Positions 2 to 41,261 of a stretch of 41,408 bases of DNA are shown here, in pieces. Source of the stretch: an uncultured Nitrosospira sp. GTDB lineage: Bacteria; Nitrospirota; Nitrospiria; Nitrospirales; Nitrospiraceae. The first letter of the stretch is position 1. Each line of letters opens with the position of its first letter. Made by a program: the position numbers and the translations under genes. The stretch is taken from positions 1 to 41,408 of the forward strand of contig CAADGK010000026.1 in assembly GCA_900696515.1 (NCBI GenBank), read 5' to 3'. The notes below the pieces were generated by a model. That model was given only the letters and a program-made list of their open reading frames with translations. It was not told the origin of the DNA and did no database searches.

Positions 2-2122
2 CAAGTGAGTAACGTCCAGAACGTGATCGGGACCAGCATGGACGACATCCTGTCCGGCGACAGCAACGCCAACTCTCTCTCCGGCAGTACCGGTAACGAT
101 ATCCTCAACGGCGGCGCCGGCAACGACGAGTTGATCGGCGGCGCCGGCAACGACACGATTCGTTACACGATCGGCGACGGGATCGACACGGTAATCGACG
201 GCGGCGCCGACACCGACACGGTAGACATTCTGGCCAATGGCGGCGATGACACACTGACCGTCACCTATGACGGCACGACGATCACCACCTTCGTGGGCAA
301 TAGTGCGCTCACCTCCATCGAGCGCTTCACGGCAAACCTCGGGGCCGGCAACGATACCTTGGTCTACACCAATGCCACGGGCGTTACGGCGGATCTCGGC
401 GCCGGAACCGCGTCGGGCTTTGCTTCGATCGCCGGCATCGAGAACGTCACCGGCGGCACGGGCGCCGACACGTTCATTGCAGGCGTCAATGATGTGCGCA
501 ACACCCTTAACGGAGCGGGCGGCACCGATACGGCCGACTATGCGGCCTATACAGCCAACTTGACCGTCAACCTGGGCGGAACAGCACCGATCGTGGTCGT
601 GGGATCCGGATCCACGACGGCAAATTCCGACGTGCTCGTCGCCATCGAGAACTTCACTGGCGGCACGGGCATCGACTCGATCACGGGCAACAGCGCGGAC
701 AACATCCTCAACGGCGGAGCCGGCAACGACACCATCAACTACGTGATAGGTGGCGGAGCTGACACCGTGGATGGTGGCGCCGGCACCGACACGCTGAATA
801 TCACGGACGGCAACGGCAACAATATCCTCGATGTCATCTACAATGGCACAGTCATCACCTCGGTCGAAGGCGGTGCAATCAGCAACATTGAAATCGTGAA
901 CGCCAATATGGGAGGCGCCGCCGACACGCTGTCCTACACCGGGTCGACTGCCAGCGTTACCGTCAATCTCGCAGACGGGACTGCCTCAGGCACGGCCTCC
1001 GGCTTTAACCAACTGATCAGTGTGTTGCACGTGACGGGTACCGCCCAAGCCGATAGCCTCTCCGGCAATAGGGGCGCCAACACCCTCATCGGCGGAGCCG
1101 GCAACGACACCTTCAACTACGTGATGGGCGGCGGAGCTGACACCGTGGATGGCGGCGCCGACATAGATACGTTGAACATCACGGAAACCGGCGGCATCGC
1201 CAGTACCCTCGACGTCCTCTACAACGGCACGGTCCTGACCTCGATCGAAGGTGGCACGATCAGCAACATTGAGATCGTGAACGCCGACCTGGGCGGCAAT
1301 GCGGATAGGCTGTCCTACGCCGGATCCACCGCCGGCGTAACCGTCGACCTTGAAGCCGGCCCCTCAGGCACCGCCTCGGGCTTCACCCAGCTGTTTAATG
1401 TCGAACACGTGACGGGTACGGCCCAGGCCGACAATCTGTCCGGCCACTTGGGCACCAATACGCTTGACGGCGGTGATGGAGACGATACATTGAACGGCGA
1501 GGAAGGAAGCGACACACTTAACGGAGATGGCGGTAACGATAGTCTCAACGGCGGCGCCGGTGCCGACATTCTCGTCGGCGGAGCAGGCGCCGATCAGATC
1601 AATACGGGCGCGGCCGATGACAACGTGCTCGATCGCATCCGCTTCAGTGCCGCCAACGAATTTGGCGACACCATCACGAATTTCGACGCGACCGGAACGG
1701 TCGATCGAATCGAGTTCGGCGGCGCGCTCAACACGGCATGGGATGATCGCACGCTCGACGATAACGTCCAGTTTTCCAGCGGCAACGGGACGTCCGGCGC
1801 AATCACCGTGAATATGACGACAACCGTGGAAGCATTGCGGTTGACAGGGGCAAACAGCGAAGGGGTCACGACGGCCAATCTCGGCAATGCGGCCCTGGTC
1901 GCGGCAGCGTTCAACGCCGAATTCGCGATCACCGCCGCGAATGGAGAGGACGCGCTGCTGGTCATCAATGACACCGACGGCAACAGTGCCTCGGTCTGGC
2001 AGTGGATTCAGAACACGGCCGTGGCCGGCAATACGGCAGAAGTCGATGCGAACGAGCTGACGCTGATCGGCGTCATCACCGCCAACGGTACGGTGGGCAC
2101 GGCCAGCTTCGACTTCTTCTGA
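2..2122 (+). CDS. RTX-type calcium-binding repeat protein, C-terminal part (type I secretion substrate)
   Basis: The reading frame is open to the left edge of the window, so this is probably the C-terminal part of a larger protein; the GTG at position 5 has no ribosome binding site. The sequence is acidic, rich in Gly, Asn and Asp, and free of Cys. It carries many nonapeptide RTX motifs such as NGGAGNDTI, VDGGAGTDTL and LNGEEGSDTL, with the densest block at about residues 485-535. These motifs bind calcium and fold as a parallel beta-roll after export. The non-repetitive C-terminus (about the last 170 residues) ends in DFF, like the uncleaved C-terminal secretion signals of type I substrates. 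A large internal repeat of 126 residues is described separately. The exporter, adaptor and outer membrane channel follow on the same strand, so this is probably their substrate. The true function (adhesin, S-layer-like or enzyme) depends on the missing N-terminus. Confidence 0.85.
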   Translation, partial: QVSNVQNVIGTSMDDILSGDSNANSLSGSTGNDILNGGAGNDELIGGAGNDTIRYTIGDGIDTVIDGGADTDTVDILANGGDDTLTVTYDGTTITTFVGNSALTSIERFTANLGAGNDTLVYTNATGVTADLGAGTASGFASIAGIENVTGGTGADTFIAGVNDVRNTLNGAGGTDTADYAAYTANLTVNLGGTAPIVVVGSGSTTANSDVLVAIENFTGGTGIDSITGNSADNILNGGAGNDTINYVIGGGADTVDGGAGTDTLNITDGNGNNILDVIYNGTVITSVEGGAISNIEIVNANMGGAADTLSYTGSTASVTVNLADGTASGTASGFNQLISVLHVTGTAQADSLSGNRGANTLIGGAGNDTFNYVMGGGADTVDGGADIDTLNITETGGIASTLDVLYNGTVLTSIEGGTISNIEIVNADLGGNADRLSYAGSTAGVTVDLEAGPSGTASGFTQLFNVEHVTGTAQADNLSGHLGTNTLDGGDGDDTLNGEEGSDTLNGDGGNDSLNGGAGADILVGGAGADQINTGAADDNVLDRIRFSAANEFGDTITNFDATGTVDRIEFGGALNTAWDDRTLDDNVQFSSGNGTSGAITVNMTTTVEALRLTGANSEGVTTANLGNAALVAAAFNAEFAITAANGEDALLVINDTDGNSASVWQWIQNTAVAGNTAEVDANELTLIGVITANGTVGTASFDFF
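713..1468 (+). repeat. Two tandem 378-bp repeat units inside the RTX gene
   Basis: Two adjacent units, 713-1090 and 1091-1468, share the same order of motifs with an exact period of 378 bp (126 codons). Both start with GGCGGAGCCGGCAACGACAC, pass through a TVDGGA calcium motif, an SNIEIVNA segment and a VTGTAQAD segment, and the next GGCGG start falls exactly 378 bp later at 1469. A more diverged copy seems to lie upstream from about position 115. Both DNA and protein are clearly related, which suggests fairly recent duplication and possible length variation between strains. Confidence 0.8.
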
Positions 2123-2135
2123 TTCGCATGTCACA

Positions 2136-2170
2136 CACACCGGGTCGCGGTTTGTCCGCGCCCCGGTGTG
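2136..2170 (+). terminator. GC-rich hairpin after the RTX gene
   Basis: CACACCGGG (2136-2144) pairs with CCCGGTGTG (2162-2170), and CGCGG (2146-2150) with CCGCG (2156-2160), around the loop TTTGT, with one mismatch. It starts 13 bp after the RTX stop codon. There is no T-tract, so it may act as a weak terminator or a 3'-end stabiliser that sets substrate mRNA levels apart from the exporter genes. Confidence 0.55.
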
Positions 2171-2498
2171 GTCACCCGCAATTGCGCCTGCTGCGCGTCC
2201 ACTCTGGGTGCAGTCACGCCGGCTCAGGCGCGGAACTGCATTGAGACCCTGCCTCGCCTGGAGAATCCTCATTGAGCTTCTTCCCAGCGAAGCCCATCAT
2301 CATCAGGTTGCGACTCGCACCGACCGCGATGCATTGCCCTCTGCTGAGCACGCCTCCGCTGCGAATCAACTGCTTGGCGGGCGATTCACGGAATACGGGA
2401 TCAAAACTCTCCAATTGCTGGCGTGAAACGCGAGAGCGTTAGACAATGGACCGTCATACATCAGCTGCCGTCCATCCATCACAAAGGAGTATGCCCCC
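2171..2498 (+). other. Intergenic stretch without a supported gene
   Basis: About 330 bp between the RTX hairpin and the next gene. Short open frames exist on both strands but lack ribosome binding sites and recognisable sequence. The only clear signal is the AAAGGAG Shine-Dalgarno of the next gene near 2481-2487. Confidence 0.5.
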
Positions 2499-2828
2499 AT
2501 GAGCGAACGCAAAGATGCCTCCGTCGGGTTGAAGGTTCAGTTGACCCCCTCTGATTCTTCCGCGCACCCACGTCTGACGAACTACACCACGATCGGTGTA
2601 GCCCATGGGATGGCCTATCTTGATTGTGGCTTCATCGAACCGACACTGCTTGCCTCTGTCGTGAAGACGGAGAAAGAAGGCCCCGCCGGCCCCAAGCGAA
2701 TAGGCGGTCACCTGGTTGCCCGTGTCGCAATGGACGTCAATGCACTTGCCCATCTGTACCAGCAAATCCAACAGGTGCTCGTCGGGTTACAAGCTGCCCG
2801 CAAAGCAACGGCAAAGGGATCAGCCTAG
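2499..2828 (+). CDS. Small DUF3467-like protein in the type I secretion locus
   Basis: A 109-residue protein starting at an ATG behind a good AAAGGAG site. A central segment (about residues 28-50, around GVAHGMAYLDCGFIEP) and a C-terminal segment with VARVAMD and LAHLYQQIQQVL resemble the DUF3467 pattern, where a short beta-rich half is followed by a helix that reads like a displaced regulator dimerisation segment. It has no signal peptide or membrane helix, so it is probably cytoplasmic. It lies between the RTX substrate and the ABC exporter, so a chaperone-like or regulatory role in secretion is possible, but that is inference from position only. Confidence 0.6.
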   Translation: MSERKDASVGLKVQLTPSDSSAHPRLTNYTTIGVAHGMAYLDCGFIEPTLLASVVKTEKEGPAGPKRIGGHLVARVAMDVNALAHLYQQIQQVLVGLQAARKATAKGSA

Positions 2829-3025
2829 GAACAGAACGACGGCATGACGAAGACACCACCGTACATCCCTCGATGATCCTGTTCCGCTTTACCGGAGCCG
2901 ACATGTCTTGCTTCGGGATCGGTCGCCCGTTCACCGAGAGACATAGATGACATGACGCTTTAGTGGTACGTGGCCACGCTTTTGAGACAGATGCTTGCAC
3001 CATCACCGATGATATATTCCCCGTC

Positions 3026-4885
3026 ATGTCTTTGCCTGACAATACGTGCGCGACTGATCGTCGGCTGAACGGATCCTCAGCTTCCGCATCCAGCACGTCC
3101 CCTCCAACACCCGATTTCGCCACCGCGCCGTCCGATCTGGGCCGCGCCCTGGCGGCCTGTCGCCGCTCCTTTCTGACCACCGGATTCTTCAGCTTGTTCG
3201 TGAATCTGCTGATGCTCGTGCCGTCGATCTACATGATGGCCGTCTATGATCGCGTGATGATGAGCGGGAGCGAATCAACGCTGATGATGCTCTCCCTCAT
3301 TACCCTGTTTCTGTTTCTCGTACTCGGGGGTCTGGAATGGGTCCGGACCCGGATGTTGGTGGCCGCGAGCGCACGGCTTGACGAACAGCTGGGCGACCGT
3401 GTCTTCAATGCCATCTTTACCCAATCCCTCACCAGCGGCGGCGCGCGCTCGACGGCCCAGCCGTTGAATGACCTGGTGCAGATCCGGCAATTTCTGAGCG
3501 GGACGGGATTACTGGCCTTTTTTGATGCACCGTGGATCCCAATCTATGTCGGGCTCATGTTTCTCTTTCATCTGTATTTCGGAGCTGTGGCCGTCCTCTC
3601 CATGCTGCTGCTGACGGCTCTGGCTATCTGGAACGAGATGGCAACCCGCACTGATCTGGCGGAGGCCAACCGAGAATCGATCGAGGCCACCCAGTTCGCG
3701 CAACGTAATTTGCGTAATGCCGAGGTCGTTGAGGCCATGGGCATGTTACCCCGCCTGCGCGCCCGCTGGCAGGTTCGCCAAATGAAGGTATTGGCGCTAC
3801 AAAGCCGGGCCAGTACCAAGGCCGGGTTGATCAACGCCCTGTCGCGGACGTCCCGTCTCACGGTTCAGTCACTCGTGTTGGGCCTGGGGGCCTATCTGGC
3901 CATCCATAAAGAGATCTCACCGGGGCTTGTCATCTCCGGATCGATCCTCCTGGGGCGAGCGCTGGCTCCGCTCGATCAAATGATTGGAGGGTGGCGCGCG
4001 TTTCTCACGGCGCGAGAGGCCTATCTGCGGCTTGATCTTCTCCTTCGTACTATCCCGGAACGCGAACCTCGAATGACGCTGCCGACGCTCCGAGGGCAGG
4101 TCACATTGGAGGGGCTTGTGATTGCGGTGCCGAGCCGAACGGAACCGATTCTCAATGGGATCACGCTCACCATCGAACCCGGAACCACGGTGGCGCTCAT
4201 CGGACCCAGCGCGGCGGGAAAATCGACATTGGCGCGGGCGATGCTCGGCCTCTATCCCCCGGCACACGGACGGGCGTGCCTCGATGGAGCGGACATCCTT
4301 AACTGGGATCGGATCCAGCTCGGTGAGTCCATCGGGTACCTTCCTCAAGACGTGGAATTGCTCGACGGCACTGTGGCGGAGAATATCGCTCGCTTTGGGG
4401 CGGTGGATGCCAAACGAGTAGTGGAGGCTGCGCAGTGGGCGGGAATCCATGAGATGGTGCTGACCTTGCCACAGGCCTACGATACGCCGCTGATCGGAGG
4501 GGGCGTCGCACTCTCGGCCGGACAACAGCAACGCATCGGCATAGCGAGGGCGATCTATGGGCGCCCGCGTGTCGTGGTCCTCGACGAGCCCAATGCGAAT
4601 CTCGATATGGCCGGAGATACCGCCCTCATGACGACAATCCAACAACTCCAACGTGACGGCTGTACCGTCGTGGTGGTCACCCATCGCACGAATGTGCTCC
4701 AGGTGGTGCATAAGATTGCCATGATCATCGGCGGCAAAGTCGTCCGCTACGGACCGCGTGAAGAGGTCCTGGCAGCGATGGCCAAACCGCCGCAACCACC
4801 AGTCCAACCGCCTGGGCTGGCCAGGACAAACGGGCTGACTTCAAGAACGCCCAGCATGCCTGAACCACAAGAAATGACATTATGA
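3026..4885 (+). CDS. Type I secretion ABC transporter/ATPase (PrtD/HlyB family)
   Basis: The inner-membrane ATP-driven exporter of the type I system. The N-terminal membrane domain spans about residues 50-310 and has hydrophobic helices including LVLGGLEWV. The ATPase domain follows with Walker A GPSAAGKST (about residue 393), signature LSAGQQQRIGIARA (about 496), Walker B VVVLDEP (about 515) and the switch histidine in VVTHRT. It lacks the C39 peptidase domain of bacteriocin exporters, which fits the PrtD/AprD group that exports RTX proteins with uncleaved C-terminal signals. The frame is open further up, to a GTG at 2963; I prefer the ATG at 3026, giving 619 residues, closer to family length. 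The Pro-rich C-terminal tail after the ATPase domain is longer than usual. The HlyD-type gene follows 21 bp later, so the two are probably co-transcribed. Confidence 0.93.
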   Translation: MSLPDNTCATDRRLNGSSASASSTSPPTPDFATAPSDLGRALAACRRSFLTTGFFSLFVNLLMLVPSIYMMAVYDRVMMSGSESTLMMLSLITLFLFLVLGGLEWVRTRMLVAASARLDEQLGDRVFNAIFTQSLTSGGARSTAQPLNDLVQIRQFLSGTGLLAFFDAPWIPIYVGLMFLFHLYFGAVAVLSMLLLTALAIWNEMATRTDLAEANRESIEATQFAQRNLRNAEVVEAMGMLPRLRARWQVRQMKVLALQSRASTKAGLINALSRTSRLTVQSLVLGLGAYLAIHKEISPGLVISGSILLGRALAPLDQMIGGWRAFLTAREAYLRLDLLLRTIPEREPRMTLPTLRGQVTLEGLVIAVPSRTEPILNGITLTIEPGTTVALIGPSAAGKSTLARAMLGLYPPAHGRACLDGADILNWDRIQLGESIGYLPQDVELLDGTVAENIARFGAVDAKRVVEAAQWAGIHEMVLTLPQAYDTPLIGGGVALSAGQQQRIGIARAIYGRPRVVVLDEPNANLDMAGDTALMTTIQQLQRDGCTVVVVTHRTNVLQVVHKIAMIIGGKVVRYGPREEVLAAMAKPPQPPVQPPGLARTNGLTSRTPSMPEPQEMTL

Positions 4886-4906
4886 CGATCAGAAACATGG
4901 TGTGCG

Positions 4907-6265
4907 ATGGCTGAACAGTTACTCGAAGGCCCACGCCCGGTGTTGAGCGACGATCGTGCGATTCGCTGGCAGGGGTTTGCGCTCGTGCTGGTGGTCTTCG
5001 GCGGACTCATTCCCTGGGCCTCGCTGGCCCCCCTCACGAGTGCCGCCTTAGCTCCAGGCGTCATTACCGTCGAGCACTATCGAAAAACGGTACAGCATCT
5101 CGAGGGAGGGATCATTCGAACGCTCGATGTGCATGACGGGGACTTCGTGCAACAAGGCCAAGTGCTCGCAACACTGGATGATACCCAATCCCGTGCCCAG
5201 CTTGAAGTCTTCCGGGGGCAGCTCTATATGCGGATTGCCCAGGAAGCTAGGCTGGCTGCGCAGCGGGATGACCTGCCGTCCGTACACTACCCCCAGGAAT
5301 TGCTTGAACACCGCGACGATGTGCGCGTTCAGGAAGCAATCCGGCTGCAGAATCAAACATTCCGGGTGCGTCAGGCGGCGAACGACGGTGAGACGGCCGT
5401 CTATCGCCGACAGATCGAGCGATTGCGAGCCAAAGTAGAAGGGCTCCGGGCACAGAAGCGCACCAAAGATCACCTCGTGGACTCCTACCGCGAGGCCCTG
5501 ACCGACTTCGAGAGCCTGCTGCATGAGGGATACACCGAAAAGCAAAAGGTCGAGGAACTGGACCGCGCGCTGGCCCAGAGTGAGGGGCACCGTGTGGAGT
5601 TGATGTCCGACATTGCGGGGAGCGAGTTGCAAATAGCCGAGATCGAGTTGAAGGTTTTGCAGCTGAAGAAGGATCTCCAACGAGAAGTGGCCAAGGAATT
5701 AAGCGAAATCCAGGCCGAATCATTCGGGCTTCGGGAGAAAGTGCAGGTCCTCGACAGTACGGTGAACCGAACCGTCATCAAGGCTCCGGTCGCCGGAATG
5801 GTACTGGGACTAGCCGTGCATACCATCGGAGCCGTCATTCCCCCGGGCGGCCACCTGCTTGACATCGTGCCCAAGGATCACAAACTGCTCATTGAAGCTC
5901 AAGTTTCGCCCATCGACATCGATCGAGTGAAGATAGGGCAGCTGGCGGAGGTCCGGTTCGGTGCATTCAATACCCGCGATGTGCCCACGATCATGGGAAC
6001 ATTGATCAGCCTCTCGGCAGACCGGATGGCCTCGGACAATGCCAGCGCCAAGAATTCCAAGGAGTCCAGCGGAGACAACGCCGCCTACTATCTGGTGCGT
6101 GTGGCCGTCTCACCCGAGGGGCTGGAAGCCTTGAGCGCCGCGAACCTCGAACTGGTGCCGGGCATGCCTGCCGAGGTACTCATCAATACGGGAGAACAAA
6201 CCCTGGTGCAGTATTTGGCAAAACCCATGACGGATACCTTCAAACGTGCTTTCATCGAGGATTGA
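4907..6265 (+). CDS. HlyD-family membrane fusion protein of the type I secretion system
   Basis: A 452-residue periplasmic adaptor linking the inner-membrane ABC exporter to the outer-membrane channel. One N-terminal membrane helix (about residues 20-45) is followed by a biotinyl-lipoyl-like half-motif around VQHLEGGIIRTLDVHDGD, a long coiled-coil hairpin (about 110-270), the second lipoyl half with APVAGMVLGL, and a beta-barrel ending in EVLINTGEQT. This order is that of the PrtE/HlyD adaptors. It begins 21 bp after the exporter gene and is followed 9-30 bp later by the TolC-type gene, which gives the usual three-gene export unit. The last residues, FKRAFIED, match the conserved C-terminus of the family. 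Confidence 0.93.
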   Translation: MAEQLLEGPRPVLSDDRAIRWQGFALVLVVFGGLIPWASLAPLTSAALAPGVITVEHYRKTVQHLEGGIIRTLDVHDGDFVQQGQVLATLDDTQSRAQLEVFRGQLYMRIAQEARLAAQRDDLPSVHYPQELLEHRDDVRVQEAIRLQNQTFRVRQAANDGETAVYRRQIERLRAKVEGLRAQKRTKDHLVDSYREALTDFESLLHEGYTEKQKVEELDRALAQSEGHRVELMSDIAGSELQIAEIELKVLQLKKDLQREVAKELSEIQAESFGLREKVQVLDSTVNRTVIKAPVAGMVLGLAVHTIGAVIPPGGHLLDIVPKDHKLLIEAQVSPIDIDRVKIGQLAEVRFGAFNTRDVPTIMGTLISLSADRMASDNASAKNSKESSGDNAAYYLVRVAVSPEGLEALSAANLELVPGMPAEVLINTGEQTLVQYLAKPMTDTFKRAFIED

Positions 6266-6295
6266 GCAGCCCCCATGGTCTCCAAGGACAACTCC

Positions 6296-7690
6296 ATGAT
6301 GCCCTATCCCGTCCTCTTCCTGTCCGTACTCACACTCCTCACCCCTACGCTGACGATGGCGTCAGACACCGCAGATAGCCAACCAGTTCTCCAGGCAGGC
6401 TCGGCGAATTTGCTACAGCTCTATGATTTGGCCATGACCACCAACCCCATAGTGGAAGGCCGCCGGTCGTCCATCGTGCAAGCCGAATCACAAAAGGATC
6501 AGGCCCTCAGCAAACTCTTGCCGCAGGTTTCGGCCACCGGCAACATCGGGTGGAACGAGTTCACCCAGGAGGTTCCCAACAGTTTCACGCGGCAGTCCAC
6601 GGATATCACCACACAATATCAGACGTTGCGCGGCGTGGTCCAGGCTCGGCAAGCGCTGTTCGATCTGGCAGCCTATCGGGCCTATGAAGGCGTCGGCTTC
6701 TCCGTGAAGCAGGCGGAACAGGATTTAGAAGACGCCCGCATGAAGCTCACCACCGATCTGGTCGATCACTACTTCGAGTTCCTCCATGCCCATGATGAAG
6801 CCGGTTACCTGCAGGGCGAGCTGGAATTGACTGATGGGGATATGCAACGGGTCCAACGCATGTATGAGCGCGCCAGAGCCAAGGTCACCGATCTGTATGA
6901 AATCGAAGCCTACTATCAGACGCTGAAGACGCGCGAACTCGAAATTGGGAATGCAAGGACGGTCGCGCTGGAAAAGGTCCGGGAAGTAGTGGGGGTGCCA
7001 GTCACCGATCTGGCGCGCCTCACGAAAGACGAATTGCCGCCGGTGCCTGGCCATCCCGACCAGTGGGTGACGGAGGCGGTCCAGCGTCATCCGGCGATGC
7101 AGGCGTTGCAATATGCGTTGGATGCAGCGGCCAAGACCATTGCCAGCCAATGGGCCAACCATTTGCCCCAAGTATCACTCCAAATGTCCGGCATCTACGC
7201 CAAGAACGGCGGGTTCGACAACCGTCAGCTCGATCCCTACACGGTCGGCACCTTGGGCTTGCAGCTCAATATCCCCTTGTATGCCGGCGGCAACACGAAA
7301 GCCGGCGAACGCGAAGCCATTGCCCGGTTCGAAATCACCAAGTACAAGCGCATGGAAAAGCAACGTGCGATCGAACGGGAGACCCGCACGGCGTACCTGA
7401 GCGCGCAAACCGGATACTCGCGCATTGCCTCAACGGCGCGTGAGGTCGAGGCCCGGGTCAAGGCGCGGGACGGTCAGCAACGGGGCTATGAGTTGGGTGC
7501 CTCCACGATCGTGGCCCTGCTGGAAGCGAAAAAGAATCTCCTGAAGTCCCGGTTCGGTTACGCCAAGGCTCGCTATGACTATATCCGATCGCTTGTGGCC
7601 CTTCGGGTCTGGGGTGGGACTCTAACGCGTGCGGATATTGAGCAGATCAACGGGTGGCTGACCCAAGACCGATTGCTCTCTCAGCCCTAG
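6296..7690 (+). CDS. TolC-family outer membrane efflux protein
   Basis: The outer-membrane and periplasmic tunnel of the type I secretion system. I place the start at the ATG at 6296, behind CCAAGGACAACTCC (AAGGA, 8-bp spacing); an in-frame ATG at 6275 lacks such a site. The protein then begins with a normal signal peptide (MMPYPVLFLSVLTLLTPTLTM, cut near ASDTADS). The rest shows the duplicated TolC repeat: LLQLYDLAMTTNPIVEGRRS in the first half and VTEAVQRHPAMQALQYALDA in the second, with long amphipathic helices and the beta-strand segments LRGVVQARQALFDLAAY and LGLQLNIPLYAGG. Length (464 residues) is typical. It completes the export unit with the preceding two genes. Confidence 0.92.
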   Translation: MMPYPVLFLSVLTLLTPTLTMASDTADSQPVLQAGSANLLQLYDLAMTTNPIVEGRRSSIVQAESQKDQALSKLLPQVSATGNIGWNEFTQEVPNSFTRQSTDITTQYQTLRGVVQARQALFDLAAYRAYEGVGFSVKQAEQDLEDARMKLTTDLVDHYFEFLHAHDEAGYLQGELELTDGDMQRVQRMYERARAKVTDLYEIEAYYQTLKTRELEIGNARTVALEKVREVVGVPVTDLARLTKDELPPVPGHPDQWVTEAVQRHPAMQALQYALDAAAKTIASQWANHLPQVSLQMSGIYAKNGGFDNRQLDPYTVGTLGLQLNIPLYAGGNTKAGEREAIARFEITKYKRMEKQRAIERETRTAYLSAQTGYSRIASTAREVEARVKARDGQQRGYELGASTIVALLEAKKNLLKSRFGYAKARYDYIRSLVALRVWGGTLTRADIEQINGWLTQDRLLSQP

Positions 7691-18064: not shown

Positions 18065-21000
18065 CTAGCCGACATGCTTCCCCGACAAGCTGATCAACTT
18101 TGCCGTCGCTTGCCCATAATGCTGATAGGCCCCCCACGTAGACCCGAGGGTGAGGATCGCCTCTCGGGCTTTCGAGAGGGACGGCCCGAGTTCTTCACCG
18201 GAGAGCGCTTCTGCGTAGAACACCTTGGCCAACTCCAACGCGGCTGCATCATCCACCGGCCATCCGGTACCGATGTAATTCTCGACCCCTCGCTCAAAAA
18301 ATGCCTGGGCCAAGCCGGCGAGGTTCCGGTTGGATTCCTGCAGCGTGAACGGCTTTCCAGATCGAATGACTCCGGAGAAGCAGGCGTTGGCAAAAACCAA
18401 GCGTGGTACACGCCGTGCGCGGAAGATATCCCGGGCGGACAGTACGTGCTCTTTCCCCAGGATCCATCCACTCTTGGCCGGGTTCTTTTCGTCAAAGTCC
18501 CCATGTCCGGAATAATGAATGAGGTCGAATTCTTCGCTCAAGATCAGGGCGAGCAATTCGACCGGATCACATTCATTCGCCCCGATTCGCTGCTCAATCG
18601 TGATATCCAGGCCCTGCTGCTCCTGCATCTCTCGCATGATCTTGACGACCTCGCGCCCCTCCTCACGCGCGCCCGGCAATTGCAGCTCGGTCTCAGGCGC
18701 GGGATCGGCGATGACAAGCACACGAAGCCGATTGGGGATGGACGGAGCGATCAATCCTGGCGCCCCGGACAAAGTGGTCCGAAACTGTCTGGTGAGATGG
18801 CGCCCAGGGCCATAAAATACGACCTTCCCATGCCGCTCAAATGCCGCCATCTCCCATGGGAACGCCGCGGTCGCACGATCCACCATGAGCGTCAGCGGGG
18901 TCATGTCGAGCGTGTCCTGAAAATCCTCCGGCATGAGATAGGTATGGAACAGTTTCCCATATTTCGACTGTTCCTCCAGCGTACGAGCCTCCCTCAGGAA
19001 ATCGGCAATGCCGTCGACATAGGACGATTGGATGGACATTTCACGGACCGGAATCACCGCCTGCTTCGTAATCGCCGAGAAACGGAATCCATCATGGTCT
19101 CGCTCAATCGTGACACGGCTGCCTTCCAGCATCTCGACCTGCTCCGGCTGCGTCGTCGGCCGACCATGGGTTCGCTTCGGCAATTGCCGCGATGACAGCG
19201 TTAATATCAGCGACCCGTCACTCCCGGCTTTGATCGTGTCCAAAATCTTTTTAATCTCCTTGAAACGACCTTTGTCGTACTCCACGATCTGGATGGTCTC
19301 GAGACGCCCGTGCCCCTTGATCCGTCTGAGTGCCGACGCCACCCCTTCGAGCATGCCCTCGATCGCCTGCTCCAACGAGAGATTCCCTTCACCGGACGCA
19401 ACCACAACCGTGGCAAAGGTTCGCCACCCGAGCGCGGTAACGCCATACGTCACATTGGCAAACAGGAGATCGACATCCTCTCGATGGAAGCGTCCATACT
19501 CGCCCATGCCGGCAAGAATCACGTTGTCGGCGGCGAGAGACCGATGCGTATTGGGGATAAGAAACACTTCACCCAACCCCCCGCCGATCATGCCCCGCTT
19601 GACCGCCCGAGAAATCCAAAACTCAAGCGCCTGATCCAGTGCTCCGACCGCCCGCACCGGCGGCACCCCCCGATAGTGGCCGGCTACCACCGCCGGTGCC
19701 TTCATATCGCGGATATCGCCGTGGACGACCTCAATCTTCAGCGCAATAGGCTCTGGGACCGACCGCTGTGCCGCCCACACCCTTGAGGCCGTTCTCACCG
19801 CATCAGTCATGGTCCGCGACACGGGAGACGCCTGTGCCATAATGGCCTGGCGAAGCATCGCCTCGGCCCGACGCCGATCGGCTGCACTGCTCCGCTCGGC
19901 CTTGGTCTCTTCCGCAATTCGGCGGATCTGCTCCGCATCCTGGCGATCTTGAACGGCCCGGGCACGCGTCGAGGTCAGCGCACGGACAGCGCGGACCGCC
20001 ACCGGCTCCGTCGCCAGCGCGCCGGTCTTGCCGGTGCGTAAGATCTCGTCGATGGCTTCGAGCACCTGCTCATGTTTCTGAAGATCACCATGGATCTCAT
20101 CGACATAATACGTCGGCACTCCCGGCAGCAGCCCCAGGGCGTGCGTAACGCGGCCATCCCCTTTCAAAGTTGTGTCAAACTCGAACCGGCCAGGGCCACT
20201 GATCGTCACCCCGCTCAATGTCTCGTGATTGCACCCGGCGATATAGGTCATCCGCTCCGGATCGATCGTGGCTGAGGCCTCAAGGTCTTCATGGAACTTC
20301 CGCGCACGAATCAGGTGCGACGCCACGACCGGATAGGAGCCCCAATTGCTCGAGGTATAGATCGCGTGTTCCGATGCAGGGAGTTTGGCGGGTGACGGCA
20401 GCAGTTGGTAACTCCCTACGAATCCATTGAGCACTTCAAGCACCTCGTCCAAATCGTGTCTCAAATCCGCCGCAGCCAGCCACTTCACGAGTTTTTCCTT
20501 GGCCACCATCGCCTGCGCAATGGCATAGGACCCATAGTTCGGCGTGCCGAGCATGATGAGTCTGCCACCCTGCACCTTCTTCGGCTCCAACATGGACTTC
20601 CACATTTTTGGATAGAGCCGAATAAAATTCCTGGACACCAAGCCCCCCATCGAGTGGGCCACCAGATGAACCGGTTGGTTCTTGAACTTGGTTTCGACGA
20701 GATCTTTCAATCGTTCCGCGGCCTGATCGAGATCTTTTCGCCAATCATAGGCAAACGGTTCCACGTTCCAGTAGGCCTTCAGCCAGAGAATCGTCTCGGC
20801 GTAGCTGCGCTTGTCGAGTCCGCTGGCCTGTACTCGCAGATTCGAATCGGCCTCTTGGACCCCATCCTTGGCCAGCCGAAGCTTGTCAATACCGCCCCAC
20901 ATCAGCCTTAGAAAACTGATCCACACCCTGTCCTCATCGCCGTCGTCGGTCACCGTCAATTCAGATCCCATGATGCCGGGGATGAAGATGACGTTGCCAC

Positions 21001-21226
21001 GAAGCGGTTCTCGCTTGCTGCGCACCGATCGCACCCGTTCCGCCAGGCGTTGTAGCCGCTCAAACTGTTCGGACCCGAACTGATCTCGTAACGCGTGCTC
21101 GGAAGCGGCTCGTGATTTCCCTCCTCGTGCTGAACGAGAAAGCGCGGCTTCAAACTCGTCCCACCCCATCTCGCGGACCACCCGGTCTGAATCATGGGAC
21201 TTGGCTCCCCTCTGTTTTCTCTTCAT
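18065..21226 (-). CDS. Alpha/beta-hydrolase (lipase-like) fused to a C-terminal CHAT protease domain
   Basis: A 1053-residue multidomain protein. The start at 21226 follows GAAAGGATG. The N-terminal part is a lipase/LCAT-like alpha/beta hydrolase with IPGIMGSELTV (oxyanion region, about residue 82) and VHLVAHSMGGLVSRNF, giving the nucleophile Ser at about 192, and GTPNYGS after it. A basic coiled segment follows (about 400-460), then a domain with VVHGDIRDMKAPAVVAGHY and GGGLGEVFLIP that resembles the M17-aminopeptidase N-terminal/macro-like fold. The C-terminus is a CHAT domain, a caspase relative, with catalytic His in IHYSGHGD (about 908) and Cys in FANACFSG (about 949), and the closing LAQAFFERGVENYIGTGWPV. 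All visible catalytic residues are intact. A metacaspase gene precedes it in the same direction. Substrates are unknown; a lipase and a protease in one chain suggests a regulated killing enzyme. Confidence 0.88.
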   Translation of the reverse strand: MKRKQRGAKSHDSDRVVREMGWDEFEAALSRSARGGKSRAASEHALRDQFGSEQFERLQRLAERVRSVRSKREPLRGNVIFIPGIMGSELTVTDDGDEDRVWISFLRLMWGGIDKLRLAKDGVQEADSNLRVQASGLDKRSYAETILWLKAYWNVEPFAYDWRKDLDQAAERLKDLVETKFKNQPVHLVAHSMGGLVSRNFIRLYPKMWKSMLEPKKVQGGRLIMLGTPNYGSYAIAQAMVAKEKLVKWLAAADLRHDLDEVLEVLNGFVGSYQLLPSPAKLPASEHAIYTSSNWGSYPVVASHLIRARKFHEDLEASATIDPERMTYIAGCNHETLSGVTISGPGRFEFDTTLKGDGRVTHALGLLPGVPTYYVDEIHGDLQKHEQVLEAIDEILRTGKTGALATEPVAVRAVRALTSTRARAVQDRQDAEQIRRIAEETKAERSSAADRRRAEAMLRQAIMAQASPVSRTMTDAVRTASRVWAAQRSVPEPIALKIEVVHGDIRDMKAPAVVAGHYRGVPPVRAVGALDQALEFWISRAVKRGMIGGGLGEVFLIPNTHRSLAADNVILAGMGEYGRFHREDVDLLFANVTYGVTALGWRTFATVVVASGEGNLSLEQAIEGMLEGVASALRRIKGHGRLETIQIVEYDKGRFKEIKKILDTIKAGSDGSLILTLSSRQLPKRTHGRPTTQPEQVEMLEGSRVTIERDHDGFRFSAITKQAVIPVREMSIQSSYVDGIADFLREARTLEEQSKYGKLFHTYLMPEDFQDTLDMTPLTLMVDRATAAFPWEMAAFERHGKVVFYGPGRHLTRQFRTTLSGAPGLIAPSIPNRLRVLVIADPAPETELQLPGAREEGREVVKIMREMQEQQGLDITIEQRIGANECDPVELLALILSEEFDLIHYSGHGDFDEKNPAKSGWILGKEHVLSARDIFRARRVPRLVFANACFSGVIRSGKPFTLQESNRNLAGLAQAFFERGVENYIGTGWPVDDAAALELAKVFYAEALSGEELGPSLSKAREAILTLGSTWGAYQHYGQATAKLISLSGKHVG

Positions 21227-21374
21227 CGGCACATCCTTTCTTGAGCACGTCGGACGAGTCGGTGTTCCACGAATCATTGATACTGCGGCTGCTGACTTAC
21301 TAGCTGCTACAAAACTCGGTTAGGACATCACCCTCTGTTGAAATATGACGGAAGGACGTATGACACGATACACC

Positions 21375-21501
21375 AACAGGATGATCAAAAAAGCCGTCCA
21401 GCAAGGCCGCAGTAAGTGAAGAGGTGAGGCGTACGCTCCGGTACGTTGAGCCTCTGAACGATGCGAGAACGCCGCTGGCGGCATTTTTCAGCATCCTGTT
21501 A
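21375..21501. repeat. Nested inverted-repeat element between the CHAT and metacaspase genes
   Basis: Outer arms AACAGGATGATCAAAAAAGC (from 21375) and GCATTTTTCAGCATCCTGTT (21481-21500) pair almost completely, with inner arms around CGTAC/GTACG (about 21430-21445) giving a second, nested hairpin. The whole element is about 127 bp. It resembles a dispersed, non-coding palindromic repeat that I associate with Nitrospira genomes. Its right arm overlaps the stop codon of the metacaspase gene (21499-21501), so it could end transcription or form the 3' end of that mRNA. Confidence 0.65.
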
Positions 21502-22335
21502 GCTCAGAAATTGGCAGTCAAACGAGGTGCGCTGTCCTTCCAGTTGCGGAATCTGATCAAAATCTTCCGCCTTCAGTTTGACCAGGGTTCGTCGGTGCAA
21601 TTCTCTATAGGTCAGCTTGCCCCCAGCTTCTTTGATCGACTCGACAAGGTAATAGGTGAGAGCCCCGTTATAGGTCCCACCGATATGCGCATCGGCGGAG
21701 GTTTGGGTAGCGCGACAGCCGGTAATCAGCATCTCCGGAATAGCGGCATGAACAACATCGCTCTTTCGCTTGCGACCACGGGGGGCCTTGCCCAGCTGGC
21801 CGCGCACGGTTCCACGGAGCCTCCGGCCTGATTCGGTGGCCATGAGATCGAGCGGACAGGGAAGGAACCGCTCTCTTCTGGAGGCATCAGGCGGAGTGAC
21901 GGCACGCGTAATGGTGCCGGAGTGGCAGCAGTCCATGATCACCGTGAGGTTGACGCCCTTCCGAAGCTTGTTGAGCGTCTTTCGAAGCCAATCGTCACGT
22001 AACGTATCCTTCCAATCCAAATCGGTCGGGCATAGAATTTCATCACGTCGATCCGCCTCATCGCCGTTGTCATCCGGCACATTCGATCCATGTCCGGAAT
22101 AATGAAACAGCAAGGTGTCGCCTTTCTTCCCGCTCTTGATGAGCTTCTGAATAGCCGCCTGCATAGCCTTCTTCGTGGCCTTCAGGTCGGTGAGGGTCGT
22201 GATATCCTTGTCCTGGAAACCGTAATAGGTCTTCAACACTCCGCTCAGATTCTTGACGTCATTGACACACCCGTTCAGATCCGACCCGGGAACTTGATAC
22301 TTGTTGATCCCGATAAGCACCGCTCGTTTCGCCAT
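21499..22335 (-). CDS. Metacaspase (caspase-family cysteine protease)
   Basis: A 278-residue caspase-like protease. The start at 22335 follows AAAGGAGAGACC; a GTG or ATG further up at 22359 is less likely. It has KRAVLIGINKY at the N-terminus, catalytic His in FHYSGHGSNVPDDNGDE (about residue 82) and catalytic Cys in IMDCCHSGT (about 137), then a basic segment (RGRKRKSD) where the p20 and p10 parts of such enzymes are divided and often self-cleaved, and a p10-like part with ITGCRATQTSADAHIGGTYNGALTYYL split across two strands. It has no signal peptide, so it is cytoplasmic. Metacaspases cut after Arg or Lys, unlike animal caspases. It is upstream of, and in the same direction as, the CHAT-hydrolase gene, with a repeat element between them. 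Confidence 0.9.
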   Translation of the reverse strand: MAKRAVLIGINKYQVPGSDLNGCVNDVKNLSGVLKTYYGFQDKDITTLTDLKATKKAMQAAIQKLIKSGKKGDTLLFHYSGHGSNVPDDNGDEADRRDEILCPTDLDWKDTLRDDWLRKTLNKLRKGVNLTVIMDCCHSGTITRAVTPPDASRRERFLPCPLDLMATESGRRLRGTVRGQLGKAPRGRKRKSDVVHAAIPEMLITGCRATQTSADAHIGGTYNGALTYYLVESIKEAGGKLTYRELHRRTLVKLKAEDFDQIPQLEGQRTSFDCQFLS

Positions 22336-22718
22336 GGTCTCTCCTTTCCGTGGTGACATGTTGCTTTAAACAGATGAGTACAATACGAGGATTCCATATC
22401 TTCCTCGCTCATTGAGCAAGCCGCTTGCCATTTCACATACGGGAAGATGAGGCACACGAGATCACACCTAGGTTGTACTACATGAATGGAGAATACAGTA
22501 TTCTTATGTTCCCTGGAAGTCTCCAGGGAACACATTCTCGTTTACGGATGGGATGGATACATCAGAACAGAGGATCCAAAAGGATACAACCCTGTATCGA
22601 AATAGGTACAGCTACCTCTGGTTCAGCCCCGGGTACGGCTGTCGTCTTGCCCACCGCCGGACGTCTGACTCCATCAAAAGCGTAGAGAGTTGAGCTGCTA
22701 TCTTCCGAGCAAGACACG
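22336..22718. other. Intergenic stretch with a perfect 11-bp hairpin
   Basis: TGTTCCCTGGA (22507-22517), loop AGTC, TCCAGGGAACA (22522-22532) is a perfect stem between the metacaspase start and the 3' end of the methyltransferase gene. There is no T-tract on either strand, so it may be a weak terminator for the methyltransferase transcript or an operator for the metacaspase promoter. No gene is seen here. Confidence 0.45.
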
Positions 22719-39040: not shown

Positions 39041-40300
39041 TTATGCCCCCAATCTCGTGAAGACTGGAAGAACCGGAGCCCAGACCGGATTGATGAGTCT
39101 TTCACCGCCCTCGGTGTAAGACATAAACAACCCTGCGAAGCGCTGGTCAGGATCGTGGAGGATGTCCACTAACCGCTGCACTTCCCAGAGCACGTCTTTC
39201 GACTCAACCTTAATATCGACCGTCTGACCTGGCATGACGGCACCTTCTTTATCCATGGTCAGCCCGGCACTTGCAACCAGCTCCTGCGGATAGTTCGGAT
39301 CCACCTTAGCAGCACCAACCTTGTTGGTGAAGCGAATACCTGCCGTGGTGAACTCTCCGATGCTGATCGGCTGAGTGCCGTTGTTGGTCACATGAAGATT
39401 CATGCGCAACGCACGACCAGGAACATCGTACTCCGCATGCGTAACTTCAATGGCCAATGGATTCGGCTTCACAGGCAACGGCTTCACCTTGGTTTCACCG
39501 GCCTGCAGAGGAACACTGATCGGGTGCTTGGACTCGGCCGCCAAATACCCAACGACCACGACGACCAACACGAACACGAGCATTGCGGCCCCGACCTTAC
39601 GATCGATCGGGTCCAACAGAATCTCATCTCCGTAAGCCGCAAGGACGCGGGCGCGAACCAAGTACATCGGGCGAATCATGAACCAACCTACCCAAAAACA
39701 TGCGACCACCACCCAGAACAGGTGCCACATGATTCCTGTCATACCGCCCATGGTCTCGGAGTCGAACGTCTCACCGGTGAGGGTCTTAACCGGGTTCGTA
39801 AAGTCTTCATAACGACCCGTGATGTCCATCCATCCACCTGGACCAGCGACCGGACCGGCCTCCTTGATCGCGAGCATAGGATGAATGTGGTGATGGCCAG
39901 GGAGTCTCGCCTTAAGCTTGACGACGTATTCATAGTCGCCGCCAATATCAAGCGGACCCGAGTTAAACATCGGAACACCGTTCATCTTCGAGCTCAAACG
40001 AACGAACACCGAGCTCGGAGACCCGACGTTCAAGAACGTGCGGTGTGGTTTCACGACGGCGCGTGGCCAGTCTTCCGACAAATGGAACCTGCCGCGCAAT
40101 TCAGTTACGTCGTTGACCTTTGTCGACTTACCAACCCATTCCGTATCATACCAGTTCACAGTACGCATCCGCAGGAATGGTTCCTGCGAGCGCTCTCCAT
40201 GAGCAAATGCAGGAGTCACATCAACCACAGGCGTGAACGCCAGCGTCGCAACTCCGCAGAAGCCCAGCACCCAGCGTTTAAAGGCTTGTTTGGCGTTCAT
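39041..40300 (-). CDS. amoB: Ammonia monooxygenase subunit B
   Basis: A 419-residue subunit of the copper membrane monooxygenase that oxidises ammonia to hydroxylamine. The signal peptide ends at TPAFA, making His34 the first mature residue (HGERSQEPF), which is the N-terminal copper ligand; the second site is in [10 protein letters not shown], where His138 and His140 correspond to His137 and His139 of PmoB. Two membrane helices follow ([18 protein letters not shown] and [18 protein letters not shown]), then the C-terminal cupredoxin domain. It overlaps amoA by 4 bp (ATGA) and is followed by a strong terminator. The sequence resembles comammox AmoB; no orthologue search was run. Confidence 0.95.
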
Positions 40301-41139
40301 GCTTTCCCCCCGATTTTTGCCTTGTCGCCATGTGCTAACGTGGCGTAGGCGAATACGTCGTAAACCTTCACCGTTCTCTGCCTGTCATCCGTGAAGTAGA
40401 AGTATGAGGTGCAGAAGAATTTCCCGAACTGCCACCACAGTACGTACACGAGTGACGATGCAAACGCAGAGAAGAAGGCCGAGATCATGGTGCTGTGACC
40501 ACCGAAGGTGCGCAGCGAACCAACCTCGATCATGCGGATGTACTCGGGAGTCCCGGTACGAACATACATGAAGCCCATGTAGTCAGCCCATGAAAGCAAT
40601 GAGCCGTCAACCACGAGCGGGGTGTGGCTATAACCAAATATTGGCCAGTTGCTCGGGTAGAATAGAATGGCGTACATCCATGCCCCGATCACGGCCGTCA
40701 GCGTCCAGTTCCTGGTCAGCAAGAGCGTAATATCCAAGACCAGCGCGCTAGGAAGCAAGGTCGCGGGCATGACGAAGTTCGGCGGATAATTGGACCACCA
40801 CCACCAAGAGGTATAGACGGCAATCCACTTTCCAAAACCGAGCGCCAGAATAGTAATCGTCGCGCCGAACGGCTGACGATAGTTCACCCAATTGTAGTAC
40901 TGGAGTGCAGCACAAAAGGTAATGGTTGTAATCGGAGTCACGATCGGCCACCATTGCCGATCCTTCCAGTCTAGCCAGAAGTCCCAGTCTCCACACAGCA
41001 ACGCGGTGTGCATGTGAAAAGTCCCGACGATGGTGATGAACAAAATCGGGATAAAATAGATGTGATCAATGTGCCGAGACATTGCCACGCCTTCCGGCGG
41101 CAATTTCGAGGCCTTGATAATTTCATCGGTTCTAAACAT
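40297..41139 (-). CDS. amoA: Ammonia monooxygenase subunit A
   Basis: A 280-residue membrane subunit of ammonia monooxygenase, the usual marker of ammonia oxidisers. I choose the ATG at 41139 ([17 protein letters not shown]) because GGAGG lies 9 bp before it; the first in-frame ATG at 41148 abuts that site. Family blocks are [76 protein letters not shown] and [24 protein letters not shown] in separate stretches. The combination of [20 protein letters not shown] and [16 protein letters not shown] reads as comammox Nitrospira rather than betaproteobacterial AmoA. It overlaps amoB by 4 bp. Confidence 0.95.
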
Positions 41140-41261
41140 AACTGACATCCTCCGTCATTCTAGCCGACCAGAAGCGGCCCGGACACTCGTCATTAACGAA
41201 ATCCCACGGACCAGCTTCTGATATCGACCAATGATACATGTGAACTACTGACCATTGCTGC
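41140..41261 (-). other. amoC-amoA spacer with a weak hairpin
   Basis: A 122-bp spacer between the amoC stop and the amoA start. CAGAAGC (41169-41175) can pair with GCTTCTG (41214-41220), but the loop is long. A Shine-Dalgarno GGAGG (minus strand, 41153-41149) serves amoA. No separate promoter is evident. Confidence 0.5.

What the first reader, a model, noticed from the sequence alone, without database searches (positions are those of the whole stretch)
18065..22335. Metacaspase next to a lipase-CHAT protease fusion: possible two-protease death or defence module
Seen: a metacaspase (His82/Cys137) and a 1053-residue chain with an alpha/beta-hydrolase, an M17-N/macro-like domain and a CHAT domain (His908/Cys949), both with intact catalytic residues, in the same direction. 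Known: CHAT and caspase-like proteases act as effectors or activators in bacterial conflict and anti-phage systems, and proteolysis often frees a toxic partner. Inference: the metacaspase could cleave the basic coiled linker (about 400-460) of the fusion and release the lipase.
Basis: partly seen in the sequence, partly recalled or inferred. Interest (0 to 1): 0.78.

Follow-up and report, generated by a model that had tools for sequence, protein, structure and literature searches.

The report
Metacaspase paired with lipase–macro–CHAT protease
Two neighbouring genes of a nitrifying bacterium, one a caspase-like protease and the other a lipase joined to a ligand-binding domain and a second protease, stay together and move together across several bacterial phyla, so they probably form an uncharacterised cell-suicide or virus-defence switch related to known two-protease immune cascades.

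Summary
A metacaspase (21499-22335, minus) lies directly upstream of a 1053-aa lipase–macro(M17-N-like)–CHAT fusion (18065-21226, minus). Catalytic residues are invariant in the homologues aligned (20 Nitrospira and 9 other metacaspases; 15 fusions). The pair is more than chance neighbourhood. In Nitrospira (this window is a comammox species, with amoA/amoB) it occupies one variable site between an O-methyltransferase and an FKBP gene, empty in some relatives. There the metacaspase is the commonest component and its downstream partner is swapped: lipase–macro–CHAT, macro–CHAT–TPR-S, patatin, TIR–TPR-S. Pair and flanking genes have different histories. Outside the genus, 8 of 18 genomes have a caspase directly beside the lipase or lipase–CHAT gene (Acidobacteriota, Pseudomonadota, Chloroflexota; about 0.01 expected). 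The CHAT part is structurally close to SAVED-CHAT, which starts the known CHAT-to-caspase cascade; the middle domain is a macro fold. Cleavage, ligand and phage defence are untested. New variant of a known kind.

The parts
21499..22335 (-). Type I-like metacaspase, 278 aa (286 aa from the upstream ATG at 22359); dyad H82 (22090-22092) and C137 (21925-21927)
   Evidence: PF00656 E=4.2e-35; best PDB matches metacaspases; H82/C137 invariant in 20 genus orthologues and across phyla; dN/dS 0.04-0.08
21757..21825 (-). Very basic stretch of the metacaspase between the catalytic Cys and the p10-like part (residues 171-193), candidate processing loop (inference)
   Evidence: present in Nitrospira orthologues and in L144, absent or shorter in other linked caspases
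18065..21226 (-). Lipase-macro-CHAT fusion, 1053 aa (1070 aa from the upstream ATG at 21277)
   Evidence: full-length relatives at 75-91% in the genus, 47% in Bryobacterales, 25-35% in other phyla
20021..21001 (-). LCAT/alpha-beta-hydrolase domain, residues 76-402; S192 (GHSMGG type), D357, H379
   Evidence: PF02450 E=2.7e-9 above cut-off; triad invariant in 15 fusions; weak PDB match to group XV phospholipase A2
19751..20020 (-). Basic, predicted helical linker, residues 403-492
   Evidence: dN/dS 0.11-0.28 against 0.05-0.11 for lipase and CHAT; helical in a low-confidence model
19229..19750 (-). Macro-fold (M17_N-like) domain, residues 493-666, proposed ligand sensor
   Evidence: PF02789 E=3.2e-6; VIA-align Z 13.6 to macroH2A1.1 macrodomain and 13.2 to a leucine aminopeptidase with aligned range in its N-terminal part
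18113..18943 (-). CHAT protease domain, residues 762-1038; H908 (18503-18505), C949 (18380-18382)
   Evidence: PF12770 E=1.3e-27; Foldseek best match SAVED-CHAT 8tl0, VIA Z 19.0; dyad invariant
21365..21498 (.). Dispersed repeat element (MITE or REP-like) lying between the two genes
   Evidence: 42 matches in the own genome, 66-97% identity
22719..23381 (-). O-methyltransferase gene that marks one border of the variable site
   Evidence: PF01596 E=5e-64; same border in the genus loci read and at the empty sites in G055 and G039

Best explanation
A two-gene regulated-death or defence module. The macro domain of the fusion senses a small ligand made during stress or infection, most likely an ADP-ribose-type molecule from TIR/DrHyd enzymes, and this activates the CHAT protease. 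CHAT then cleaves and switches on the neighbouring metacaspase, probably in its basic inter-subunit loop; the metacaspase cleaves many proteins, and the lipase, which has no recognised export signal, attacks the cell's own membrane lipids. Shown here: domains, intact catalytic residues, macro and CHAT folds, conserved linkage, shared history of the pair, partner swapping in a variable locus with NAD-signalling genes. Inferred: ligand, order of cleavage, lipase target, defence role.
For: Conserved pair: in the genus the caspase is directly or within two genes upstream of a lipase-(macro)-CHAT or macro-CHAT gene in most genomes that carry it. Outside the genus, a caspase is a direct neighbour in 8 of 18 genomes, about 0.01 expected; in five of them it is the only caspase of the genome. 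Pair moves as a unit: window versus G035 dS 0.60 and 0.60 for the two genes, 1.39-1.76 for six flanking genes; versus G004 the reverse, 1.60 and 1.30 against 0.56-0.96 for five. Variable site with empty sites in G055 and G039, holding TIR, DrHyd-like, TPR-S, SLATT, SLOG-like, patatin and trypsin genes in relatives. Macro fold Z 13.6 and SAVED-CHAT as top Foldseek match. SAVED-CHAT acts through a proteolytic cascade (PMC11229360). Macro domains sense His-ADPR in type II Thoeris and a caspase-like protease is switched on by N7-cADPR in type IV Thoeris (PMC12847820).
Against: No signal-producing enzyme lies beside the pair in this genome; TIR and TPR-S genes are on other contigs. The metacaspase also stands without any CHAT neighbour in G024, G016, G045, G031 and G012. 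The model of the macro-CHAT part has mean pLDDT 66 and the full-length model 48, so domain arrangement is unknown. No ligand, cleavage or phage phenotype was tested. Related M17_N domains in aminopeptidases are not known to bind ADP-ribose, so the ligand is a guess.
Confidence: 0.42

Rival explanations
1. One reading: the metacaspase is the upstream protease and cuts the basic linker of the fusion, freeing an active lipase (and the macro-CHAT part).
For: Metacaspases generally cut after Arg/Lys (own knowledge) and the linker is Arg-rich; the caspase gene comes first in almost all pairs; a lipase without CHAT also has a caspase neighbour in Anaerolinea, gap 9 bp (L147).
Against: No linker site conserved beyond close orthologues. 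The Anaerolinea lipase has no macro-CHAT part to be freed from. Relatives with macro-CHAT and no lipase keep the same metacaspase (G011, G032, G006).
Confidence: 0.2
2. Parallel effectors: metacaspase, CHAT and lipase are each switched on by the same or different signals and do not cleave one another; linkage reflects joint deployment from a defence site.
For: The locus is a mosaic in which effectors are added and swapped; metacaspase occurs alone in some genomes.
Against: Direct adjacency recurs in distant phyla, and pair distances (dN Pearson 0.67) correlate better than pair-flank distances (-0.11 to 0.33), which suggests a closer tie.
Confidence: 0.23
3. Not a conflict system: the genes serve proteolysis and lipid turnover in ordinary stress or envelope regulation, and the neighbourhood is that of a general genomic island.
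For: CHAT-like folds occur outside defence, such as the anti-sigma factor DdvA and separase; PADLOC gives only generic caspase and partial BovA matches.
Against: Patchy distribution, empty sites, partner swapping, discordant history and company of TIR, SLATT and TPR-S domains.
Confidence: 0.15

Closest known systems
SAVED-CHAT and PCaspase of Haliangium ochraceum type III-B CRISPR / CBASS
   Same: A sensor domain fused to a CHAT protease, with a separate caspase-like protease encoded beside it; SAVED-CHAT is the top Foldseek match and provides immunity by a proteolytic cascade (PMC11229360; that CHAT cleaves PCaspase is from my own knowledge of the 2024 Science paper, not held here).
   Different: Sensor is a macro fold, not SAVED; a lipase is fused at the N-terminus; no CRISPR or cyclic-oligonucleotide synthase gene was recognised nearby; the partner here is a metacaspase whose relation to PCaspase was not tested.
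Thoeris type II (macro-domain effector, His-ADPR) and type IV (N7-cADPR-activated caspase-like protease)
   Same: Macro fold as proposed sensor; caspase-like protease as effector; TIR genes beside the metacaspase in relatives G042 and G012 (PMC12847820).
   Different: No TIR gene at the window locus; two proteases and a lipase; architecture of the type IV protease not compared (paper not held).
Craspase / TPR-CHAT (Csx29) of type III-E CRISPR
   Same: CHAT protease fold.
   Different: No Cas7-11 or RNA guide; macro and lipase domains instead of the TPR sensor.
TPR-S / TIR-DrHyd-SLOG conflict systems predicted by Burroughs and Aravind
   Same: TPR-S, DrHyd-like, TIR, SLOG-like, SLATT and patatin genes occur in the same site in sister species; TIR-DrHyd-SLOG enzymes as signal producers (PMC9503650).
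   Different: None of these domains is in the window's own pair.
Bacterial gasdermin with caspase-like protease
   Same: Protease gene next to a membrane-damaging effector.
   Different: No gasdermin; effector is a lipase fused to a second protease.

Membership tests
Metacaspase (peptidase C14) | PF00656 above curated cut-off | tested here: met
   121.9 bits, cut-off 21.4
Metacaspase (peptidase C14) | His/Cys catalytic dyad | tested here: met
   H82/C137 invariant
Metacaspase (peptidase C14) | Arg/Lys specificity and Ca2+ dependence | not testable with these tools
   needs biochemistry; acidic residues near the dyad are conserved
CHAT protease | PF12770 above cut-off with His and Cys conserved | tested here: met
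   97.5 bits, cut-off 24; H908/C949 invariant
LCAT-type lipase | PF02450 above cut-off with Ser-Asp-His triad | tested here: met
   37.2 bits, cut-off 21; triad invariant
Macro fold | structural match over most of the domain | tested here: met
   Z 13.6, 169 residues, rmsd 3.1 to macroH2A1.1
Macro fold | ADP-ribose binding | not testable with these tools
   G503 of the GDI loop is invariant in 15 fusions, no binding data
SAVED-CHAT / PCaspase system | SAVED sensor fused to CHAT | tested here: not met
   no SAVED match at E up to 1 in the fusion; its sensor position holds a macro fold
SAVED-CHAT / PCaspase system | separate caspase-like protease gene beside the CHAT gene | tested here: met
SAVED-CHAT / PCaspase system | CHAT cleaves and activates the caspase | not testable with these tools
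   needs biochemistry
Thoeris | TIR gene in the same operon | tested here: not met
   no TIR among window neighbours scanned; genome TIR genes on contigs C114 and C108
Borvo (BovA) | match along the BovA model | tested here: not met
   only 92 of 711 model positions, in the CHAT part
TPR-S conflict systems | TPR-S domain in the module | tested here: not met
   absent from the window pair; present in relatives at the same site and elsewhere in the own genome

The most novel reading that the evidence does not exclude
A bacterial suicide or immune pathway in which an ADP-ribose-type signal is read by a macro domain fused to a CHAT protease, which fires a metacaspase and a covalently tethered phospholipase: signal sensing, protease cascade and membrane lysis in two genes, spread over at least four phyla.
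Probability: 0.28. Interest if true: 0.8.

Novelty: new variant of a known kind. Interest (0 to 1): 0.6.

Why it matters
Only a few bacterial protease cascades of the caspase type are known. If this pair is one, it would add a version in which the trigger is read by a macro fold and the executioner includes a lipase, with no CRISPR or CBASS partner, and a two-gene system simple enough to test whether bacterial metacaspases are activated by cleavage. It would also give a function to metacaspases in comammox Nitrospira, key nitrifiers for which no such system was found in the literature searched.

Tried and rejected
Full-length AlphaFold model: mean pLDDT 48, so nothing is concluded on how the domains pack. 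PADLOC, NCBIfam: no system-level match. Looking for remnants of SLATT or DrHyd-TPR-S-SLOG beside the window pair: none. Phage records: no relative of the fusion. SAVED family in the own genome: no hit, but the control rang nowhere, so absence is not shown. Conserved cleavage site in the linker: none found beyond close orthologues. Papers on SAVED-CHAT/PCaspase, type IV Thoeris and the Burroughs-Aravind 2020 survey are not held; statements from them rest on citing papers or on my own knowledge. PCaspase and type IV Thoeris protease sequences were not at hand, so homology of our caspase to them is untested.
Full report
What is there. The window is one contig (C26) of a 4.59-Mb, 144-contig genome. 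Relatives of the pair at 76-91% identity are in Nitrospira, and the window carries genes for ammonia monooxygenase subunits A and B, so this is a comammox Nitrospira. On the minus strand lie a 278-aa metacaspase (21499-22335) and, downstream, a 1053-aa fusion (18065-21226). The fusion has an LCAT-type lipase, a basic linker, an M17_N-like domain and a CHAT domain, each above Pfam's cut-off. The lipase triad S192/D357/H379 is intact too.

Conservation. H82 and C137 are invariant in 20 Nitrospira metacaspases (mean column identity 90%) and in nine caspases from outside that set. The lipase triad and the CHAT dyad are invariant in 15 fusions, five of them only 28-29% identical. dN/dS against the window is 0.04-0.08 for the metacaspase and 0.08-0.13 for the fusion; within the fusion, CHAT (0.05-0.07) and lipase (0.06-0.11) are tightest and the linker (0.11-0.28) and N-terminus loosest. 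Both proteins are kept functional.

The site. Among 59 genus genomes the metacaspase orthologue occurs in about 24 and the window-type fusion in 13, 12 of which have the metacaspase (P=2e-5 without correction for kinship). Where contigs allow, the metacaspase is always at the same place, between an O-methyltransferase / M32 carboxypeptidase block and an FKBP-type gene. In G055 and G039 these border genes are direct neighbours: empty sites. In others the site holds a changing set: lipase-macro-CHAT (window type); macro-CHAT-TPR-S in G011, G032 and G006; a longer DUF7379-lipase-macro-CHAT, with TPR-S where complete, in G023 and G018; patatin in G034; TIR-TPR-S, patatin, fusion and DUF4062 in G042; TPR-S-patatin and fusion in G004; TIR, trypsin-TPR-S and DrHyd-TPR-S in G012; and upstream a SLATT (DUF4231) two-TM protein and a DrHyd-like-TPR-S-SLOG-like protein in several (DrHyd and SLOG are my readings of the sequence, the rest are Pfam matches). 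G038 has SLATT, DrHyd-TPR-S-SLOG, a TIR-like gene and patatin without the metacaspase. G024, G016 and G045 have the metacaspase with no CHAT gene beside it. So this is a variable conflict-type site in which the metacaspase is the commonest member and its effector partner is exchanged.

The pair has its own history. Window versus G035: dS 0.60 for both genes, but 1.39-1.76 for six flanking genes. Window versus G004: pair 1.60 and 1.30, five flanking genes 0.56-0.96. Over eight genomes, pairwise dN of metacaspase and fusion correlate at 0.67, pair against flanks at -0.11 to 0.33. The two genes therefore tend to be exchanged together, independently of the flanks.

Beyond the genus. A scan of 84,980 species genomes found lipase-CHAT relatives in Acidobacteriota, Pseudomonadota, Actinomycetota, Bacteroidota and Chloroflexota. 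A caspase gene lies immediately upstream on the same strand in Bryobacterales (L124), Burkholderiales (L144, 59% identical to ours), Rhodocyclaceae (L133), Denitromonas (L140), Thauera (L141), a betaproteobacterium (L148) and Azonexus (L164). In Anaerolinea a solo lipase is followed by a caspase after 9 bp (L147). Of 18 genomes checked, 8 have such a direct neighbour; about 0.01 would be expected by chance (P about 1e-22, or 2e-10 if only four independent cases are counted), and in five of the eight it is the genome's only caspase. The betaproteobacterial cases are related to each other. In 10 of the 18 there is no caspase neighbour, so the partnership is common, not universal. Linked caspases from four phyla group together apart from unlinked Nitrospira caspases, though the sampling favours this.

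Fold. A model of residues 483-1053 (mean pLDDT 66) gives SAVED-CHAT (8tl0) as best Foldseek match, then Csx29/TPR-CHAT and separase. VIA-align gives Z 19.0 to SAVED-CHAT, tied with gingipains and separases, and for residues 11-184 of the model Z 13.6 to the macroH2A1.1 macrodomain and 13.2 to a leucine aminopeptidase. So the architecture is a possible ligand-binding domain followed by CHAT, as in SAVED-CHAT, with a lipase added in front. The full-length model is too poor to use.

Mechanism. SAVED-CHAT acts through a cascade of proteolysis (PMC11229360); from my own knowledge the CHAT domain cuts and activates a caspase called PCaspase. By analogy, and given a sensor-like domain on the CHAT protein and none on the metacaspase, I think CHAT to metacaspase is the likelier order. 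The ligand is proposed to be ADP-ribose-like for three reasons: macro fold; type II Thoeris reads His-ADPR with a macro domain and type IV switches on a caspase-like protease with N7-cADPR (PMC12847820); and TIR, DrHyd-like, SLOG-like and TPR-S genes keep company with the metacaspase in sister species (TIR-DrHyd-SLOG enzymes as signal producers, PMC9503650). In the window's genome such genes are on other contigs, so the signal would have to come in trans. The lipase could act with, or after, the proteases. None of these steps has been measured.

Against it: no linker site conserved beyond close orthologues, and the same metacaspase serves relatives whose CHAT partner has no lipase.

Verdict. 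A real, conserved two-gene module, probably for regulated death or defence; a new variant of known sensor-CHAT plus caspase systems. No description of this pairing was found in the papers held, which leave out most subscription journals.

Noticed in passing
39041-41148 (-): Genes for ammonia monooxygenase subunits B and A: the genome is a comammox Nitrospira.
   Followed up: partly
21365-21498: 134-bp repeat between metacaspase and fusion with about 40 relatives in the genome; another copy lies between the same two genes in G029 (L091 11407-11530), at a different distance.
   Followed up: partly
5-7690 (+): RTX-repeat protein followed by ABC transporter, HlyD and outer-membrane efflux genes: a probable type I secretion set.
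   Followed up: no
L114 (own genome, C114: about 26000-45000): Separate island with TIR, DrHyd-like-TPR-S and CHAT-TPR-S genes, a possible source of an NAD-derived signal in trans.
   Followed up: partly
L119 444-1418 (-), own genome C72: A second caspase gene a few genes from what looks like a type I restriction gene.
   Followed up: no
L094-L100: A 30%-identical lipase-macro-CHAT without a caspase neighbour sits at other places in seven Nitrospira, six of which also have the metacaspase (P=0.015, uncorrected for kinship).
   Followed up: partly
L089 7124-9381 (-): In G019 the metacaspase C-terminus is altered and overlaps a WD40-repeat ORF, as if being fused or decaying.
   Followed up: no
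L167 2929-7902: Azospirillum: a 1657-aa ORF with a caspase match directly before a lipase gene.
   Followed up: no
L218 5827-11289: On a Rhizobium leguminosarum plasmid the lipase-CHAT relative is followed by SIR2-family and nuclease genes.
   Followed up: no
L221 5947-8469: Qingshengfaniella plasmid: a related lipase annotated in one protein with a trypsin-like protease, again lipase with protease.
   Followed up: no
L091 8354-11333 (-): In G029 the fusion is split over three frames, a pseudogene or assembly error.
   Followed up: no
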